Assembly (NCBI GenBank): GCA_030045215.1
Contig: JASIBJ010000646.1
Location: 1-8,498, forward strand
Origin: Streptosporangiaceae bacterium
GTDB lineage: Bacteria; Actinomycetota; Actinomycetes; Streptosporangiales; Streptosporangiaceae
Length of the DNA stretch: 8,498 nucleotides
Reading direction: 5' to 3'
Positions within the stretch are counted from its first letter, which is position 1. Each line of letters starts with the position of its first letter. This document shows positions 1-8,119 of the stretch, one piece after another. A program made the translations under genes and the position numbers. Under the pieces are notes generated by a model. It did no database searches. It had not been told where the DNA came from and worked only from the letters and a program-made list of their open reading frames with translations.

Positions 1-1539
1 GCGGCCGGCGGGACCGACGTCGTAACCGGCGCGAAGAAGTTTCCCACCGACCTGCGCCTGGACGGCATGCTGCACGGTTGCGTCCTGCACCCGCCCGCAG
101 CCGGCGCCGAGCTAGCCGGAGTGGACACCACGGCCGCGCAGGCGCTGCCCGGCGTGACCGTGGTCAGGGACGATGACCTGATCGGCGTGCTCGCGGCCAG
201 CCATGCGGCCGCCCGCCGGGCGCTCGCGGCGATCACGGCCGACTGGCGGGCACGGCCAGGGCCCACGGCTGCCGGCCTCGGGCGCTACCTCCGCGAGCAT
301 CCGGCCGAGGGTGACGGCAGATGGGGCCCGTTCCGGCGTGAAGACGGCGACCCGGACGCCGCGCTCACCGCCGGGCCAGTCCGGGTCGAGGCGGAATACA
401 GCGCGGCCTACATCGCCCACGTGCCGCTTGAGCCGCGGACGGCGCTCGCGCAGTGGCGCGGCGACGAGCTCACGGTCTGGGCCGCCACGTCCACGCCGTT
501 CCGCGCGCGGCGCGAACTGGCCGACGCGCTCGGACTGGACGAGTCCTCGGTGCACGTCGTGGTGCCGGACTTCGGCGGCGGGTTCGGCGGCAAGCACGGC
601 TCGGCCGTTGCCCTCGAGGCAGCGCGGCTGGCCCGGGCCGCCGGCCGGCCGGTCAAGGTGCAGTGGAGCCGCTCCGACGAGTTCGTCTCTGGCTACCTGC
701 GGCCGGCCGCGGTCATCGACGCGGCCGCCAGCGCGGGTGCCGACGGCCGGCTGACGGCCTGGTCGTTCACCAACATCAACTCCGGGGCGGCCGGGATCAC
801 GACTCCGTACCGGATCCCGAACCAGCGGATCGGCTACCAGCCGGCCGACGCGCCGCTCGCGCAGGGCTCGTACCGGGCGCTGGCGGCGACCGCGAACAAC
901 TTCGCCCGCGAGTCGCTGATGGACGAGCTGGCTGCGGCCGTCGGCGCCGATCCGGTGCAGTTCCGGCTGCGCCACCTCGACGACGACCGGCTCGCCGCCG
1001 TGCTGCGCGCCGCGGCGGCCGAGATCGGCTGGCCGGGTAGCGGGACCGGCGTCGACCGGACCGGGCAGGTCGGGGCCCGGACCGGCGTCGGGATCGCGCT
1101 TGGCCTGGAGAAGGACGGGCGGGTGGCGACCGCGGCCAGGGTCCGCGTCGGCTCCGACGGAGCCACCGACGTCGTGGCGCTGATCACGGTCGTCGATTGC
1201 GGCGCCGTCGTGCATCCGGACGGCCTGGCCAACCAGGCCGAGGGCGCGGTCATGATGGGCCTCGGGCCCGCGCTGTTCGAGCAGATCGAGTTTGACGGCG
1301 GGCGCATCCTCAACGGCTCCATGTCGGCCTACCGGGTGCCCAGGCTCGCGGACCTGCCGGAGCAGACGCGCGTCGTCCTGCTTGACCAGCCCGGCCAGGC
1401 GCCGGCCGGCGGCGGCGAGGCCCCGATCATCGCGGTTGCGCCCGCGATCGCCAACGCCGTCTTCCGCGCGTGCGGGGTCCGGCTGCGCTCGATGCCGCTG
1501 ATTCCGGGCGGCCGGGTCAGATTGCCTTCCCCGGATTGA
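1..1539 (+). CDS. Molybdenum hydroxylase large (molybdopterin-binding) subunit, xanthine dehydrogenase/isoquinoline 1-oxidoreductase family, 5'-truncated by window
   Basis: The frame is open from base 1 (AAGGTDVVTGAKKF...), so the gene begins upstream and the ATG at 67 is internal. About 512 residues are visible. They open with the hammerhead-domain signature (VTGAKKFPTDLRLDGMLHG, bases 25-81). A Moco-binding GGGFGGK motif follows at 574-594, then the substrate-pocket region QGSYRALAAT near 862-891, and a late GGGEAPI whose Glu (1417-1419) matches the catalytic Glu of the family. These enzymes hydroxylate N-heterocycles or aldehydes at a Mo centre and pass electrons to 2Fe-2S/FAD partners. 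Because the hammerhead here is followed directly by the main Moco domain, and because the visible part is short for the family (usually 700-800 aa), I infer an IorB/nicotinate-dehydrogenase-B-like layout with about 200 residues upstream. The substrate cannot be told from sequence. The stop at 1537-1539 overlaps the convergent FAD oxidase gene. Confidence 0.9.
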   Translation, partial: AAGGTDVVTGAKKFPTDLRLDGMLHGCVLHPPAAGAELAGVDTTAAQALPGVTVVRDDDLIGVLAASHAAARRALAAITADWRARPGPTAAGLGRYLREHPAEGDGRWGPFRREDGDPDAALTAGPVRVEAEYSAAYIAHVPLEPRTALAQWRGDELTVWAATSTPFRARRELADALGLDESSVHVVVPDFGGGFGGKHGSAVALEAARLARAAGRPVKVQWSRSDEFVSGYLRPAAVIDAAASAGADGRLTAWSFTNINSGAAGITTPYRIPNQRIGYQPADAPLAQGSYRALAATANNFARESLMDELAAAVGADPVQFRLRHLDDDRLAAVLRAAAAEIGWPGSGTGVDRTGQVGARTGVGIALGLEKDGRVATAARVRVGSDGATDVVALITVVDCGAVVHPDGLANQAEGAVMMGLGPALFEQIEFDGGRILNGSMSAYRVPRLADLPEQTRVVLLDQPGQAPAGGGEAPIIAVAPAIANAVFRACGVRLRSMPLIPGGRVRLPSPD

Positions 1540-2951: not shown

Positions 2952-3002
2952 GCTGGCTTTCGGACGATGTCCGGCGTGCAAGCGGGGGCAAGCCATCCGA
3001 AC

Positions 3003-3007
3003 GGAGG
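3003..3007 (+). promoter_or_regulatory. Ribosome-binding site deciding the methyltransferase start
   Basis: A perfect GGAGG lies 4 nt before the in-frame TTG at 3012-3014. The upstream ATG at 2967 would put this site inside the coding region. Confidence 0.65.
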
Positions 3008-3011
3008 CAGG

Positions 3012-3839
3012 TTGAGCGAGACTGAAGTCGCGCCACCTGGTGTTGATCCGACAATCCCCAGCCCGGCCCGCCTGTACGACTACTACCTGGGCGGCACTCA
3101 TAACTTCCAAGCCGACCGGGATATGGCCGACAAGCTCCAGGCCGCGACACAGGGCGACCTGAAGGACGCAGTCCTGGCCAACCGCGGCTTCCACATCCGG
3201 GCGGCGGCCTGGATGGCGCGCCAGGGCATCCGTCAGTTCCTCGACATCGGCTCGGGCCTGCCGACCCAGAACAACACGCACGAGACCGTGCAGGCGGTCG
3301 ACCCCGCGACGCGGGTGTTGTACGTCGATAACGACCCGATGGTCGGCGCCTACGCCACCATGCTGCTAGCCGGCGACGGCACGACCGCGCTGGTCATCGC
3401 CGACCTGCGGGATCCCGACGCGGTAATGGCGAGCCGGCGGCTGCGCTCGATGCTCGACCTCGGCCGGCCGATGGGTGTCATGATGACCGCGGTCATGCAC
3501 TTCGTGGCCGACGACGGCGATCCGTGGGGCCTGGTCTCCCGTTACATGGCGGCGGTCGCGCCCGGCAGCTATCTCGCGCTGTCGCACGGGACCGCCGACA
3601 AGATGGACCCGAGCGCCATCCGGACCGGCGAGGACCTGTATTCGCGGTCGACCTCGAACGTGCACTTCCGGTCCAGGGAACAGGTCGAGCGGTTCTTCGC
3701 CGGCCTCGAACTTCAGGCGCCCCTGCCCGGAGCCAAGCCCGAGGTCAGCTACGCCGGCTTGTGGGGCGCCGAGGACCCCTCCGCGGCCGATACCGACGGA
3801 TCGCGGGCCATCTACTGCGGGGTCGCCCGCCGGCCCTGA
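3012..3839 (+). CDS. SAM-dependent methyltransferase, DUF574/Methyltransf_19 family
   Basis: Predicted 275-residue cytosolic methyltransferase of unknown substrate. The N-terminus carries the family hallmark PSPARLYDYYLGG (residues 16-28) followed by HNFQADR. The SAM-binding motif I is LDIGSGLPT (77-85), with NTHE just after it. The acidic strand-2 motif is YVDNDP (104-109), where D106/D108 would contact the SAM ribose. Later segments PMGVMMTAVMHFV and GSYLALSH also match the family. The length is typical. I start at the TTG at 3012 because of its GGAGG site; an ATG at 2967 adds 15 residues with no family similarity that I recognise. The family exists as many paralogues in actinomycetes and its cellular role is poorly defined. 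The gene stands alone: it is divergent from the FAD oxidase and separated from the next gene by 169 bp containing tandem repeats. Confidence 0.9.
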   Translation: MSETEVAPPGVDPTIPSPARLYDYYLGGTHNFQADRDMADKLQAATQGDLKDAVLANRGFHIRAAAWMARQGIRQFLDIGSGLPTQNNTHETVQAVDPATRVLYVDNDPMVGAYATMLLAGDGTTALVIADLRDPDAVMASRRLRSMLDLGRPMGVMMTAVMHFVADDGDPWGLVSRYMAAVAPGSYLALSHGTADKMDPSAIRTGEDLYSRSTSNVHFRSREQVERFFAGLELQAPLPGAKPEVSYAGLWGAEDPSAADTDGSRAIYCGVARRP

Positions 3840-4008: not shown

Positions 4009-7000
4009 GTGAACCTTCACCCTCGGCCCAGTCGCCAGCTTTCTCGCCGCGCCGTGACAGCCGCGGCCGCGTCCATGCTCTGCGTATCCGCGGTCGCGCT
4101 GTCGCTTGCGCAAGCGAGCCCCGCTCTTGCCGCCGGCAAGCCACATCTCGTTCCCGGCCACGCGCACGCGGCCGGTCGTCCGTCGCCCGACGCCGCCACG
4201 GTCCACGTGTCCGGCCAGGCCGCGAGCGACTCCGCAAGCACCGCGACCCTGACCGAGACGCCGTCTGAGGTGCCGAACGGCGCCAACCTGACCTTCACGT
4301 ACACGGTCCCCTCGTCCGAGGTGAACTCGGAGAACTGGATCGGGATGTACGAGCCGGGACAGACGCCCGGCGTCGAAGACTCCACCTGCTGGAACTGGTC
4401 GCCCGGCGCGAGCGGCACGCTGACGTTCCCCAGCGACTGCCTGGACGGCGTGGGACCGTATGTCGCCTGGCTGTTCTACGACAACGGCTACACCGAACTG
4501 GCCGGCCCGGTGGACTTCACCGTCATCCCCTCCGCCCCGGCTCCGGCTCCGCAGTACGCGGCCTCGATCGGGCAGTACGGCCCCGGCCACCTGACCGATC
4601 CGTTCGGCGTCGCGGTGGCCCCTGACCAGAGCATCTGGGTGGCCGACCGGGCTACGAGCCAGGTCGAGCACTTCAGCCAGTCCGGTCAGTTCCTCGGCGC
4701 GATCGGCGCCGGCGTCCTGCGCCACCCGGACGGCGTGGCGGTCGACGCCGCGGGCAATGTCTGGGTCGCCGACACCGGCCATGACCAGATCGTGGAATTC
4801 TCGCCGGCCGGGCACGTGCTCCAGTCGTTCGGGTCCAACGGCTCGGGCAACGGCCAGCTCGATCACCCGCAGGACCTGGCCTTCGACTCCGCCGGCGACG
4901 TCTGGGTCGCCGACCAGGACAACAACCGGCTGGAGGAGTTCTCGGCCGCCGGCAGTTACCTGTCGCAGATCTCCGTCGCCACTCCGGACGGAGTCGCGAT
5001 CGATTCGGCCGGGAACCTGTGGGTGTCCAGCCCCAGTTACGCTGACGGCAACGCCGTCTACGAGTTCCAGGCGGACGGCAACAACCTCCAGTACTACGGC
5101 ATCACCCAGGCCTCCTACGGCGCGTTCTCGAACACCGCCGGGATCGCGATCGGCCCGGCCGGCAAGATCTACGTGGTGAACGCGGACTACAGCCTCGTCA
5201 CCGTGCTCAACCCGGACGGCAGCTTCTACACCGAGTTCGGCCTGCAGGCAGATCCGGCCGAGGGTGCCGAGGATCTGTCGTTCCCGCAGGGCATCGCGGT
5301 CACGTCCCACGGCACCGTGTACGTTGCCGACAGCGGCAACGGCCGCGTGGTCGAGTACACCCCGGCATCGGCGTCCGGCAGCGCGGCACTGATCCCGCCC
5401 GCTGGCGGCGGCACGCCCTGGCTGCCGATCGGCCTGGGTGTCCTCGGGCTCGCCGCGTGTGCCTGCATCGCATGGCTACTGCTGCGGCGCCGCAGCCTGC
5501 GCGCAGCGGCCGCGCCGACCCCCGCGCCCGCGATGGCTACCGCTGCCGCGTCCAGCCTCCCGGCCATGATGCCGATGACCGGCACGGCGCTCGCCGCGAA
5601 CGGCAGCCACGGCAACGGCCAGGCCAGCGACGGCACCGGCAGCAACGGGCACGCGAGCCCTTCCGGCTTCGGTGTCAGCCGCAGGTCGCTGCTGACCAGC
5701 GCGACCGCTCTCACCGGAGTGGCGGCCGGCGCCACGGTCCTGCCGCTGAGCCTGCGCAAGGCGGTCAGGGCATCGCTGGCAGCCGACCGGGGAGCAACCA
5801 GCATCAACGACATCGAGCACATCGTGATCCTGATGCAGGAGAACCGGAGCTTCGACCACTACTACGGCACGATGCCCGGAGTCCGCGGGTACCAGGACCC
5901 CACGGCGATCACGCTGCCGAACGGCAACCTGGTGTTCTACCAGCCGGATCCCTCGCACGCCCAGGGCTACCTGGCGCCGTTCTATTACGACCCGTCCAGG
6001 ACCAGCGCGCAGGCCACGCCGGGAACCGACCACACCTGGCCGACCCAGCATCAGGCCTGGGACCACGGCAAGATGGACCAGTGGATCGCGGCGAAGGGCC
6101 CCTACACGATGGGGTACTTCAAGCAGCAGGACATCCCCTTCCACTGGGCCCTGGCCGAGGCGTTCACCATCTGCGACAACTACCACTGCTCGGTGTTCGG
6201 CCCGACCAACCCGAACCGGCTGTACATGTGGACCGGCATGATCGACCCGAACGGCACCGGCGGCGGGCCGATCATCGACAACAGTCCCGCGTACAACAAC
6301 ATCATCCTGTCCTGGCGGACCTATCCCGAGTTGCTCGAGGCAGCGGGGATTAGCTGGAAGGTCTACCAGGAAGAGGACAACTACGACGACAACGCGCTGG
6401 CCTGGTTCAAGCAGTTCGGCTACGCGTCCACGTCCTCCCCGCTGTGGCAGAAGGGCATGTACAAGGGACCGGCCGGCGCGTTCGAAGAGGACGCCAGGCG
6501 GGGGCGGCTGCCGCAGGTGTCCTGGCTCGTGGCGCCGACCGCGCAGACCGAGCATCCGGACTACTTCCCCGCTGCGGGGGCGGAGTACATCGCGCAGAAG
6601 CTGGACGCGATCGCGTCGAACCCCGACCTGTGGTTCAAGACCGCGTTCATCCTCTGCTACGACGAGAACGACGGCATGTTCGACCACGTGCCGCCGCCAG
6701 TGGCGCCGGCCGGCACGCCGGACGAGTTCGTCAACGCGTCGAGCACGGGGCTCGCGAACATCGGCCTCGGCTTCCGCACTCCGACCACGATCGTGTCGCC
6801 GTGGACGGCCGGCGGGTTCGTCTGCTCGGAGGTGTTCGACCACACCTCGCTGATCCAGTTCATCGAGGCCAGGTTCGGCGTCTACGAGCCGAACATCAGC
6901 GCCTGGCGCCGCCAGACGTGCGGGAACCTGACCTCGGCGTTCCGCTTCGGCGCTGCGCCCTCCGGTTACTCGGGCACCGGCGAACTCGGGCTCGCCGTGA

Positions 7001-7092
7001 CCGAGAGCCGGCTGCTGCGGGCTCAGGCCCAGGTGAACGACAACCCGTTCCCGGTCCCGCCGGCGGTCAACGAGCCGCTGCCGAAGCAGTAG
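4009..7092 (+). CDS. Multidomain exported protein: signal peptide, beta-sandwich-like domain, NHL propeller, TM helix, internal Tat signal, phospholipase C domain
   Basis: 1027 residues in one open frame. Residues 1-42 are a signal peptide (twin Arg 13-14, cleavage near ALA-41). Residues ~76-175 form a small domain with WIGMY (109-113) and a FYDNGY motif (~155-160); C127/C144 may pair. Residues ~183-455 hold six NHL-type repeats (PxGVAVD..GNVWVADxxxxxVxEF), enough to close a propeller. Residues 471-492 are a TM helix followed by RRR (493-495). A Pro/Ala then Gly/Asn-rich linker leads to SRRSLL (557-562) and a hydrophobic stretch to 582, a Tat-like signal. Residues ~600-1000 are a phosphoesterase/phospholipase C domain with ENRSFDHYYG (611-620), GPTNPNR (731-737), YDENDGMFDH (884-893) and DHTSLIQFIEARFG (944-957). 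By superfamily analogy E611/N612, T733 and D885/E886 would be metal/nucleophile residues. Likely a surface-anchored enzyme cleaving phospholipid or another phosphodiester. The GTG at 4009 is the only plausible in-frame start giving a full signal peptide, but its RBS is weak. No internal RBS supports a separate phospholipase gene. Confidence 0.9.
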   Translation: MNLHPRPSRQLSRRAVTAAAASMLCVSAVALSLAQASPALAAGKPHLVPGHAHAAGRPSPDAATVHVSGQAASDSASTATLTETPSEVPNGANLTFTYTVPSSEVNSENWIGMYEPGQTPGVEDSTCWNWSPGASGTLTFPSDCLDGVGPYVAWLFYDNGYTELAGPVDFTVIPSAPAPAPQYAASIGQYGPGHLTDPFGVAVAPDQSIWVADRATSQVEHFSQSGQFLGAIGAGVLRHPDGVAVDAAGNVWVADTGHDQIVEFSPAGHVLQSFGSNGSGNGQLDHPQDLAFDSAGDVWVADQDNNRLEEFSAAGSYLSQISVATPDGVAIDSAGNLWVSSPSYADGNAVYEFQADGNNLQYYGITQASYGAFSNTAGIAIGPAGKIYVVNADYSLVTVLNPDGSFYTEFGLQADPAEGAEDLSFPQGIAVTSHGTVYVADSGNGRVVEYTPASASGSAALIPPAGGGTPWLPIGLGVLGLAACACIAWLLLRRRSLRAAAAPTPAPAMATAAASSLPAMMPMTGTALAANGSHGNGQASDGTGSNGHASPSGFGVSRRSLLTSATALTGVAAGATVLPLSLRKAVRASLAADRGATSINDIEHIVILMQENRSFDHYYGTMPGVRGYQDPTAITLPNGNLVFYQPDPSHAQGYLAPFYYDPSRTSAQATPGTDHTWPTQHQAWDHGKMDQWIAAKGPYTMGYFKQQDIPFHWALAEAFTICDNYHCSVFGPTNPNRLYMWTGMIDPNGTGGGPIIDNSPAYNNIILSWRTYPELLEAAGISWKVYQEEDNYDDNALAWFKQFGYASTSSPLWQKGMYKGPAGAFEEDARRGRLPQVSWLVAPTAQTEHPDYFPAAGAEYIAQKLDAIASNPDLWFKTAFILCYDENDGMFDHVPPPVAPAGTPDEFVNASSTGLANIGLGFRTPTTIVSPWTAGGFVCSEVFDHTSLIQFIEARFGVYEPNISAWRRQTCGNLTSAFRFGAAPSGYSGTGELGLAVTESRLLRAQAQVNDNPFPVPPAVNEPLPKQ
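5419..5484 (+). other. Encoded transmembrane segment joining propeller and phospholipase halves
   Basis: Residues 471-492 of the phospholipase fusion are continuously hydrophobic (WLPIGLGVLGLAACACIAW then LLL) and are followed at once by three Arg. By the positive-inside rule this is a stop-transfer helix, with the propeller outside and the following linker in the cytoplasm. Confidence 0.75.
5677..5754 (+). other. Encoded internal twin-arginine (Tat) signal-like segment
   Basis: Residues 557-582 read SRRSLLT followed by an Ala/Gly/Leu-rich hydrophobic run. This is the kind of N-terminus usually seen on stand-alone actinobacterial phospholipases C, but here it lies more than 550 residues into the protein, after a TM helix. 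It would send the catalytic domain back across the membrane. Confidence 0.65.
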
Positions 7093-7198: not shown

Positions 7199-7230
7199 GC
7201 CTGACGTGCTTAGCGCGTCAGGCGCGCGGA
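7192..7230. terminator. Strong hairpin, likely bidirectional terminator between convergent genes
   Basis: A perfect 15-bp inverted repeat has its left arm at 7192-7206 (TCCGCGCGCCTGACG) and its exact reverse complement at 7216-7230. The 9-nt loop may shorten by further pairing. There is no T-tract on either side, which is common for actinobacterial terminators. The thioesterase stop codon (7210-7212) falls in the loop, so one arm is the end of that coding region. The hairpin sits where both the phospholipase and thioesterase transcripts must stop. Confidence 0.7.
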
Positions 7231-7938
7231 GGCCAGCAGGTGCCGTCCGTCCAGCAGCCACAGCAGCTGGTCGTGACCGTCGCTTCCGGTTGCCACCCGC
7301 GGCGTGCAGCCCGGATTCATCGGCCGGTGATACTCCATCTCCGCTCGCGCCGGCAGCGCGCCGCCGTCGGCCAGGAGGTCCTCGACGACGGCCCAGTGAA
7401 TGGCGTTGTTGACATGGCGGGCCGTGTCGAAGTCGGCCTCCCGCAGCGGCCAGGCGCGGCCCGGCTCGGTACCCGCCGGGCGTGAGTGCGACAGCCGGGC
7501 CGATACCGCCTTGTCCTCCGCGGAATCGCCGTAGACACGCAGGAACGCCTCACCCAGTGCTACCGGCCTGCCGGTTGCGCGGTCGACGGCCGCCCAGACC
7601 GCGGTGGCCTGCAGCATGTCCCCGGCCGCGCCGGCCACGGTCGTGGTGCGCTCGGCCCAGCGCGGACCGGTGCCCGAGCAGAAGGTCCGCAGCGTGATGC
7701 GGTCCCCCATCTGCGGGAAGCCGTGCACGATCACCCCGCACCGCCGGACCAGCCAGACCACCGGAGCCAGCAGCCCGGAGTCGGCCAGGTCATCCTCGGC
7801 CACCGCCTGCAAGTACCTGGCCAGCGAATCAAGCCGGAGCCGGCCGGCCTGGGTCACATCCGTGCTGCGGACCAGCCTCTTCGCCGTGTAAACGCGGCCG
7901 CGGGCCGGGTCGGGCCGGAAGGCTTTGGTCGACGTCAT
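7210..7938 (-). CDS. Acyl-ACP thioesterase-like double-hotdog protein
   Basis: 242 residues, predicted cytosolic, hydrolysing an acyl-ACP or related acyl thioester. The first hotdog half shows RSTDVTQAGRLRLDSLARYLQ (roughly residues 24-44) and later SGTGPRWAERTT, both typical of the acyl-ACP thioesterase family. The second half has DFDTARHVNNAIHW (169-182), the catalytic-loop signature, and MEYHRP (~201-206), where E202 aligns with the catalytic Glu region of plant FatB. In FatB the loop reads DxNxHVNN; here the Asn position is Ala (D171-A173-H175), a substitution also plausible in bacterial members. I start at the ATG at 7938 (MTSTKAFRPD). The upstream ATG at 8013 would add 25 residues unlike the family and would run into a CRP-like site. 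No strong RBS precedes 7938, so a very short leader is possible. The gene is convergent with the phospholipase gene and shares its terminator. Confidence 0.85.
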   Translation of the reverse strand: MTSTKAFRPDPARGRVYTAKRLVRSTDVTQAGRLRLDSLARYLQAVAEDDLADSGLLAPVVWLVRRCGVIVHGFPQMGDRITLRTFCSGTGPRWAERTTTVAGAAGDMLQATAVWAAVDRATGRPVALGEAFLRVYGDSAEDKAVSARLSHSRPAGTEPGRAWPLREADFDTARHVNNAIHWAVVEDLLADGGALPARAEMEYHRPMNPGCTPRVATGSDGHDQLLWLLDGRHLLASARLTR

Positions 7939-7998
7939 CCCGGCATTCTTACAGTCGCTGACGGCTCCGAGCCCGTTGTGAGCTCGCTCTGAGTCTGC

Positions 7999-8014
7999 TG
8001 TGATCCAGATCATA
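7999..8014. promoter_or_regulatory. CRP/FNR-family operator candidate
   Basis: TGTGATCCAGATCATA matches the CRP palindrome TGTGA-N6-TCACA at 9 of 10 defined bases, and its core TGATC-CA-GATCA is a perfect inverted repeat. It lies 61-76 bp upstream of the thioesterase ATG and about 220 bp upstream of the secreted-protein start, so it could serve either gene. Confidence 0.4.
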
Positions 8015-8119
8015 ACGGCGATCTGGACATTTTAGGCATAGCGGTATCTGGTGCTCGCGTTTCACTCTGAGTAACTGACAGCACCCAGGTGCGTGATGGT
8101 TGCCCCCGAGCGACATCGC

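What the first reader, a model, noticed from the sequence alone, without database searches (positions are those of the whole stretch)
4009..7092. One-frame fusion of a six-blade NHL propeller to a phospholipase C through a membrane helix
Seen: a single 1027-codon frame carries a signal peptide, an extracellular beta domain, six NHL-type repeats, a TM helix with RRR after it, a linker and a full phospholipase C domain with all its hallmark motifs. Known: actinobacterial phospholipases C of this family are usually stand-alone Tat-exported proteins of about 450-550 aa. Inference: a surface-tethered enzyme whose propeller binds a ligand, cell wall or partner. I do not recall this architecture as a characterised system.
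Basis: partly seen in the sequence, partly recalled or inferred. Interest (0 to 1): 0.7.

Follow-up and report, generated by a model that had tools for sequence, protein, structure and literature searches.

The report
Propeller-lipase fusion with two export signals
One bacterial gene encodes a protein whose first half looks built to leave the cell by one export machine and whose second half, a lipid-cutting enzyme, carries a fully conserved signal for a second machine, making it a likely new kind of two-machine exported protein.

Summary
The fusion is real. Frame 4009-7092 (1027 aa) encodes a signal peptide, a SKICH-like Ig domain, a six-bladed NHL propeller, one strong TM helix followed by RRR, a variable linker, and a PlcH/PlcN-type phospholipase C (PLC). 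It is not an assembly artefact: the 119 best-scoring relatives align to it, two MAGs carry it in one open frame, and the fused PLC domains fall on one side of a supported branch.

A TM helix followed by RRR would leave the PLC in the cytoplasm, but the fused PLC begins with its own Tat signal (S-R558-R559-S-L-L). RR is invariant in 120 of 120 rows, after a poorly conserved linker. Helix energies (TM median -2.4, Tat helix +1.0 kcal/mol) resemble proteins exported by Sec then Tat, such as actinobacterial Rieske.

Best explanation: Sec exports the SKICH-like domain and propeller and inserts the TM; the PLC folds inside, then Tat carries it out, leaving a hairpin-anchored (or signal-peptidase-released) surface phospholipase. 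Separate-gene NHL-then-PLC and SKICH-like-then-PLC neighbours suggest origin from adjacent genes. Two-translocase export is inferred, not shown. New variant of a known kind.

The parts
4009..7092 (+). whole fusion gene, 1027 codons, GTG start
   Evidence: relatives in one frame
4009..4143 (+). N-terminal signal peptide (residues 1-45), read as Sec: an RR motif before the N-terminal h-region occurs in only 20 of 82 rows where that region could be read (of 120), the window among the 20
4222..4557 (+). stretch modelled as SKICH-like / purple-acid-phosphatase-N-like Ig domain (core residues about 75-176); optional in the family (56 of 120 rows)
4555..5364 (+). six-bladed NHL beta-propeller (residues 183-452)
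   Evidence: PF01436; model strands; TRIM71 NHL TMt 0.89 and M. tuberculosis PknD ectodomain TMt 0.84
5419..5493 (+). Sec-type TM helix (residues 471-492) with RRR 493-495
   Evidence: dG -2.66 for the window; negative in 119 of 119 rows; AlphaFold helix 472-493
5503..5676 (+). low-complexity, gappy, predicted cytoplasmic linker (residues 499-556)
   Evidence: mean commonest-residue fraction 0.21; loop 16-83 residues in 119 rows
5677..5760 (+). internal Tat signal: S557-R558-R559, weak h-region 561-579, basic residues R583 K584
   Evidence: RR invariant 120 of 120; dG median +1.03, positive in 118 of 119; dN/dS 0.089 against L001, 0.46 against L002
5812..6882 (+). phospholipase C catalytic domain, PF04185 residues 602-958
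   Evidence: 375 bits; 9gy2 PLC-N aligned from its own SRRSF motif, 444 bits

Best explanation
A membrane protein made by two translocases in turn. Sec exports the N-terminal SKICH-like domain and NHL propeller and stops at the TM helix, whose RRR stays inside. Propeller and lipase end on the same outer face, joined by a two-helix hairpin with a short cytoplasmic loop, so the lipase acts at the cell surface next to a binding or sensing propeller. Shown here: architecture, conservation, energies, single branch, separate-gene neighbours. Inferred: use of both translocases, surface location, propeller function. Undecided: whether signal peptidase cuts after the Tat helix and frees the PLC.
For: RR 558-559 invariant in 120 of 120 rows, while the linker before it is poorly conserved (mean fraction of rows with the commonest residue: linker 0.21, TM 0.48, RRR after the TM 0.80, Tat 557-582 0.77). 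dN/dS against L001: Tat 0.089, PLC 0.117, TM 0.67, N-terminal signal 0.73 (few changes in the short segments). dG: TM median -2.41 (119 of 119 negative), Tat helix median +1.03 (118 of 119 positive), loop 16-83 residues, net charge of at least +1 after the Tat helix in 103 of 119. The published Rieske set has TM1 -1.3 to -4.3, TM3 +0.25 to +1.29 and a minimum loop of about 8 (PMC5449189, sections 7 and 8 read). TIGR03396 starts its match at the Tat signal; stand-alone PLC frames carry RR at the corresponding place in 82 of 82 that hold the anchor motif used, 7 more of 89 lacking the anchor. PaPlcH is secreted through Tat (PMC8634861, passage). N-terminal RR in only 20 of 82. TatC in 3 of 3 related genomes, and each also has a Rieske protein with two strong helices and a third with an internal RR. 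Fused PLCs are one side of a 100* branch (52 taken as fused against 82 stand-alone).
Against: No experiment. RR could be kept for another reason. Against the more distant L002 the Tat segment is not specially constrained: dN/dS 0.46, against 0.50 for NHL, 0.52 for TM and 0.155 for PLC. The 120 rows are the best-scoring of 3930 hits; the others were not examined. In 22 of 119 rows the net charge after the TM is not higher than before it (the best window often swallows the arginines). The AxA site at 585/587 persists in 94 of 120, so the PLC may be cut free.
Confidence: 0.75

Rival explanations
1. Export polyprotein: the same Sec-then-Tat route, but signal peptidase I cuts after the Tat helix, so one gene yields a membrane-anchored propeller and a separate, released PLC.
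For: AxA-like residues at the place where stand-alone PLCs have theirs in 94 of 120 fused rows, against 16 of 19 close stand-alone PLCs that fit the search pattern, that is, no clear loss.
Against: 26 of 120 rows, the window among them, lack it at that place, although a shifted S-L-A site exists in the window. Most Rieske proteins are described as keeping the Tat helix as an uncleaved membrane anchor (PMC7317946, passages).
Confidence: 0.3
2. PLC stays in the cytoplasm: N-out, single TM, C-in; the Tat segment is a fossil of the donor gene.
For: The TM with RRR after it, by the positive-inside rule; weak Tat constraint against L002.
Against: RR invariant 120 of 120 and dN/dS 0.089 against L001 are not fossil behaviour; stand-alone PLCs carry a Tat motif.
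Confidence: 0.08
3. The whole chain goes by Tat from its N-terminal signal, and the internal signal is idle.
For: The window's own N-terminus has SRRAV.
Against: N-terminal RR in only 20 of 82 readable rows; the TM helix before the PLC is of the Sec type in 119 of 119.
Confidence: 0.06
4. Artefact: two genes joined by an assembly error or a missed stop.
For: Separate-gene arrangements exist.
Against: The same fusion in 119 aligned relatives and in L001 and L002; one branch; steady GC3.
Confidence: 0.01

Closest known systems
Actinobacterial Rieske protein QcrA / Sco2149 (dual Sec-Tat)
   Same: Sec helices, a cytoplasmic loop, an internal twin-arginine, a weak last helix, a folded exported C-terminal domain
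   Different: N-in with two Sec helices and no large ectodomain before the loop; an Fe-S electron carrier, not a lipase
Long YkuE-type metallophosphoesterases (N-out, 4 TMD; PMC5449189)
   Same: N-out start, internal RR before the last helix, a phosphoesterase as Tat cargo
   Different: Three Sec helices; no propeller described; different enzyme fold (recalled); in the sections read the Sec-Tat route is predicted, not tested, for them
PC-PLC family TIGR03396 (9gye PLC-H, 9gy2 PLC-N; Pseudomonas PlcH and PlcN recalled)
   Same: Catalytic domain and Tat motif align together
   Different: Theirs stands at the protein's N-terminus; the fusion lacks the PF05506 C-terminal domains
M. tuberculosis PknD extracellular propeller (1rwl)
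   Same: Six-bladed NHL-type propeller (TMt 0.84), tied to a membrane helix (recalled for PknD)
   Different: PknD couples it to an inside kinase (recalled); here the partner enzyme is predicted outside
SKICH domains (NDP52, TAX1BP1) and the N-terminal part of plant purple acid phosphatase 3zk4
   Same: Fold of residues 72-183
   Different: No sequence match to any Pfam family at E of 1 or less

Membership tests
Dual Sec-Tat membrane proteins | Sec-type helix before the internal twin-arginine | tested here: met
   dG negative in 119 of 119 rows
Dual Sec-Tat membrane proteins | conserved RR directly before the last helix | tested here: met
   120 of 120 rows
Dual Sec-Tat membrane proteins | last helix weak (dG above 0) | tested here: met
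   118 of 119 rows, median +1.03; own code with recalled coefficients, checked; the related genomes' own Rieske helices do not come out positive by it
Dual Sec-Tat membrane proteins | basic residues after the last helix | tested here: met
   net charge at least +1 in 103 of 119; R583 in 93% of 120 rows
Dual Sec-Tat membrane proteins | loop of at least about 8 residues | tested here: met
   16-83 residues, 119 of 119
Dual Sec-Tat membrane proteins | export depends on both Sec and Tat | not testable with these tools
   needs tat mutants and RR to KK
PC-PLC (TIGR03396) | score over the curated cut-off | tested here: met
   582.4 against 580.25
PC-PLC (TIGR03396) | C-terminal PLipase_C_C domains (PF05506) | tested here: not met
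   no match in the window protein; best stretch reaches profile position 450 of 688. Whether the family requires them was not tested
PC-PLC (TIGR03396) | phosphatidylcholine hydrolysis | not testable with these tools
   assay needed
NHL propeller | NHL repeats in a six-bladed ring | tested here: met
   repeats, strands, folds
SKICH | SKICH fold | tested here: met
SKICH | sequence family match | tested here: not met
   0 Pfam families at E of 1 or less; hence 'SKICH-like' only

The most novel reading that the evidence does not exclude
A new family of dual-translocase proteins in which a large Sec-exported sensor ectodomain (SKICH-like domain plus propeller) and a Tat-exported hydrolase sit on one membrane hairpin, so that the propeller controls a lipase beside it on the cell surface; born by joining of an operon pair.
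Probability: 0.45. Interest if true: 0.72.

Novelty: new variant of a known kind. Interest (0 to 1): 0.6.

Why it matters
PMC5449189 (2017) describes four families that use, or are predicted to use, Sec and Tat on one chain: Rieske, a haem-Moco protein, a polyferredoxin and a YkuE-type phosphoesterase. This would add a phospholipase, with only one Sec helix before the hand-over and a large folded ectodomain before that. It gives a test of how Tat takes a cargo whose N-terminal half is already outside, and a genomic record (separate pair, then fusion) that bears on how such proteins arise, a question that paper leaves open.

Tried and rejected
Group searches of genomes gave no answer. One search used a window range in the wrong reading frame; its matches are void and were not used; one search is the correct one. 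An internal start giving a stand-alone PLC was considered: the codon before S557 is GTC, not a start, and many relatives have F at that place ('AEFSRR'); starts further up the linker were not tested. N-terminal Tat export of the whole chain was rejected (20 of 82). The full-length model is poor in the PLC part (pLDDT often under 50), so no statement is made on how the PLC faces the propeller. Function could not be read from the fold hits; a shared fold shows no function. Paper searches for this architecture (20 of 51 papers listed; 12 of 14 listed) and for other or newer dual Sec-Tat proteins (14 listed; 1; 5; 1) showed none of this build in titles and abstract starts; the full texts were not read except as said. 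The supplementary hit lists of PMC5449189 could not be read, so the family may be in them unnamed. Searches on SKICH in bacteria (12 of 29 listed) and PknD (8 of 13 listed) were not read further.

Full report
OBSERVATION. The 1027-codon frame at 4009-7092 is there as described. Pfam finds NHL repeats and PF04185 at 602-958 with 375 bits; NCBIfam finds PC_PLC TIGR03396 just over its cut-off, 582.4 against 580.25 bits. An AlphaFold model made with 50 rows gives a confident propeller; counting its strands gives six blades (24 strands between 182 and 451, the first closing the last blade) and a helix at 472-493. Foldseek finds TRIM-NHL domains and the PknD ectodomain. GC3 is 0.90-0.97 from codon 80 on.

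REALITY OF THE FUSION. The protein search found 3930 proteins at E of 1e-3 or less among 7998 scored candidates and listed the best 120. I aligned the window protein (P0001) with 119 of them; P0002 is the window's own record and was dropped. That gives 120 rows. All 120 hold the NHL and PLC regions by the coverage rule used. L001 and L002, Streptosporangiaceae MAGs, have the fusion in one open frame; L003 is cut by its contig end. Among 297 genomes of G001's family, 32 had a match at E of 1e-60 or less to residues 465-764 (47 matches, of which 30 were given as loci). Of the 30 loci, 2 are fused (L125, L126, the same genes as L001 and L002), 2 are cut by a contig end (L127, the gene of L003; L128, which shows basic residues before its Tat motif), and 26 are stand-alone PLCs. 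The 17 matches without a locus, one of them in an open frame of 824 aa, were not examined for fusion. PLC domains of 52 sequences taken as fused (the window, 49 relatives, and the two cut ones, L127 and L128) and 82 stand-alone ones give a tree in which the fused are one side of a branch with 100* support, one change (FastTree, with long-branch warnings among stand-alone rows; the two sets were gathered by different searches).

THE MISSED ELEMENT. Directly before the PLC lies S557-R558-R559-S-L-L, a weak hydrophobic stretch and basic residues: a Tat signal. TIGR03396 begins its match there (profile position 2 at residue 557). Of 89 stand-alone PLC frames in the loci, 82 hold the anchor motif used and all 82 have an RR motif 25-85 residues before it; 7 lack the anchor and were not counted. 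So the PLC came into the fusion with its export signal. RR is invariant in 120 of 120 rows. Mean fraction of rows with the commonest residue: linker 499-556 0.21, TM 0.48, RRR after the TM 0.80, Tat 557-582 0.77, start of the PLC 0.96. dN/dS against L001: Tat 0.089 (3 nonsynonymous, 12 synonymous changes), PLC 0.117, SKICH-like 0.097, NHL 0.148, TM 0.669, N-terminal signal 0.734; only 24 of 58 linker codons could be aligned. Against L002 the contrast is much weaker: Tat 0.46, NHL 0.50, TM 0.52, PLC 0.155. The invariant RR, rather than dN/dS, is the main argument that the signal is in use.

WHY THIS CHANGES THE READING. With a cleaved signal peptide and one TM followed by RRR, the PLC would be cytoplasmic. 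An internal Tat signal puts it outside. Sec-Tat assembly was shown for actinobacterial Rieske, Sco3746 and a polyferredoxin, and an N-out YkuE family was predicted (PMC5449189: abstract, sections 7, 8, 9 and 14 and passages read; review PMC7317946: passages). Their features are a strong earlier helix, a weak last helix, basic residues after it, and a loop of at least about 8 residues. Here, over 119 rows (the window included; P0056 fell out of the search pattern): TM dG median -2.41, all negative; Tat helix median +1.03, range -0.12 to +1.97, 118 positive; loop 16-83; net charge of at least +1 after the Tat helix in 103; higher net charge after than before the TM in 97. The scale was recalled; on C. 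glutamicum QcrA it gives -2.90 for TM1 as a 22-mer (published -2.873) and -0.55 to -1.32 for TM2 (published -0.761). Against this, the Rieske third helices of G001-G003 come out at -0.5 to -0.9 by my code, so the sign alone is not a sharp test. TatC is present in 3 of 3 related genomes, and each also has a Rieske protein with two strong helices followed by an RR helix. The N-terminal signal is read as Sec, because an RR motif precedes it in only 20 of the 82 rows where it could be read; the window is one of the 20.

ORIGIN. Separate-gene versions occur. In G008 (L155) an NHL protein of 616 aa ends at 4318 and a Tat-signalled PLC starts (ATG) about 30 bases on; that propeller is a distant one (108 bits in three pieces to my NHL profile), so it is a parallel pair, not a shown parent. 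In G219, G172, G134 and G231 (L156-L159) SKICH-like proteins lie upstream of a Tat PLC on the same strand; in L159 the SKICH-like frame ends some 550 bases before the PLC; in L157 the SKICH-like protein also has an Exo_endo_phos domain over cut-off. In 2 of 5 Curtobacterium loci (L017, L021; not L020, L024, L025) the upstream SKICH-like protein ends in a TM helix with a basic tail, and the PLC start codon overlaps its stop codon (GTGA at 7791, ATGA at 8061). Of the 30 loci, 1 has NHL and 4 have SKICH-like upstream, 4 are fused or cut, and 21 show neither within the flank held. This fits birth of the fusion from an adjacent pair, one of the two origins that PMC5449189 discusses for its families; the exact parents were not found.

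TETHER OR RELEASE. The place of the signal-peptidase site in stand-alone PLCs keeps AxA-like residues in 94 of 120 fused rows and in 16 of 19 stand-alone ones that fit the search pattern. The window itself has A-V-R there, with S-L-A further on. This leaves both a hairpin-anchored enzyme and a released one open; I favour anchored.

NOVELTY. The enzyme, propeller and dual-export principle are all known. The combination (one Sec helix, a large folded ectodomain and a phospholipase as Tat cargo) was not in the listings of my paper searches. The supplementary lists of PMC5449189 were not readable here. New variant of a known kind.

Noticed in passing
L017:5851-7791, L021:5674-8061, L157:3391-5154, L156, L158, L159: A SKICH-like domain, sometimes doubled, sits upstream of PLC genes; in L157 its protein also has an Exo_endo_phos domain over the Pfam cut-off, and the others look similar by eye. 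As recalled, human SKICH is likewise found on 5-phosphatases, and the fold also occurs on purple acid phosphatase: the domain recurs beside unrelated phosphoesterases.
   Followed up: partly
linkers of P0041, P0043, P0045, P0047, P0048, P0055, P0058, P0059, P0063, P0064: A subgroup (10 of 120 rows by the pattern used) has a conserved stretch around C-E-M-P-D-P-A in the predicted cytoplasmic loop between TM and Tat signal, where the other rows are poorly conserved.
   Followed up: partly
L017 about 7650-7794; L021 about 7890-8064: The Curtobacterium SKICH-like proteins end in L-A-F-T-G plus a TM helix and basic tail, which resembles a class E sortase signal (recalled motif).
   Followed up: no
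window 2967-3839 +: S-adenosyl methyltransferase PF04672 (264 bits) just upstream on the same strand; no link with the fusion was sought.
   Followed up: no
window 1-1539 +, 1517-2911 -, 7210-8013 -: Molybdopterin hydroxylase large subunit (cut by the window end), a GlcD-like FAD oxidase and an acyl-ACP thioesterase.
   Followed up: no
G001, G002, G003: These MAGs show 13, 9 and 9 PF04185 matches, some of them fragments; no comparison with other genomes was made.
   Followed up: no
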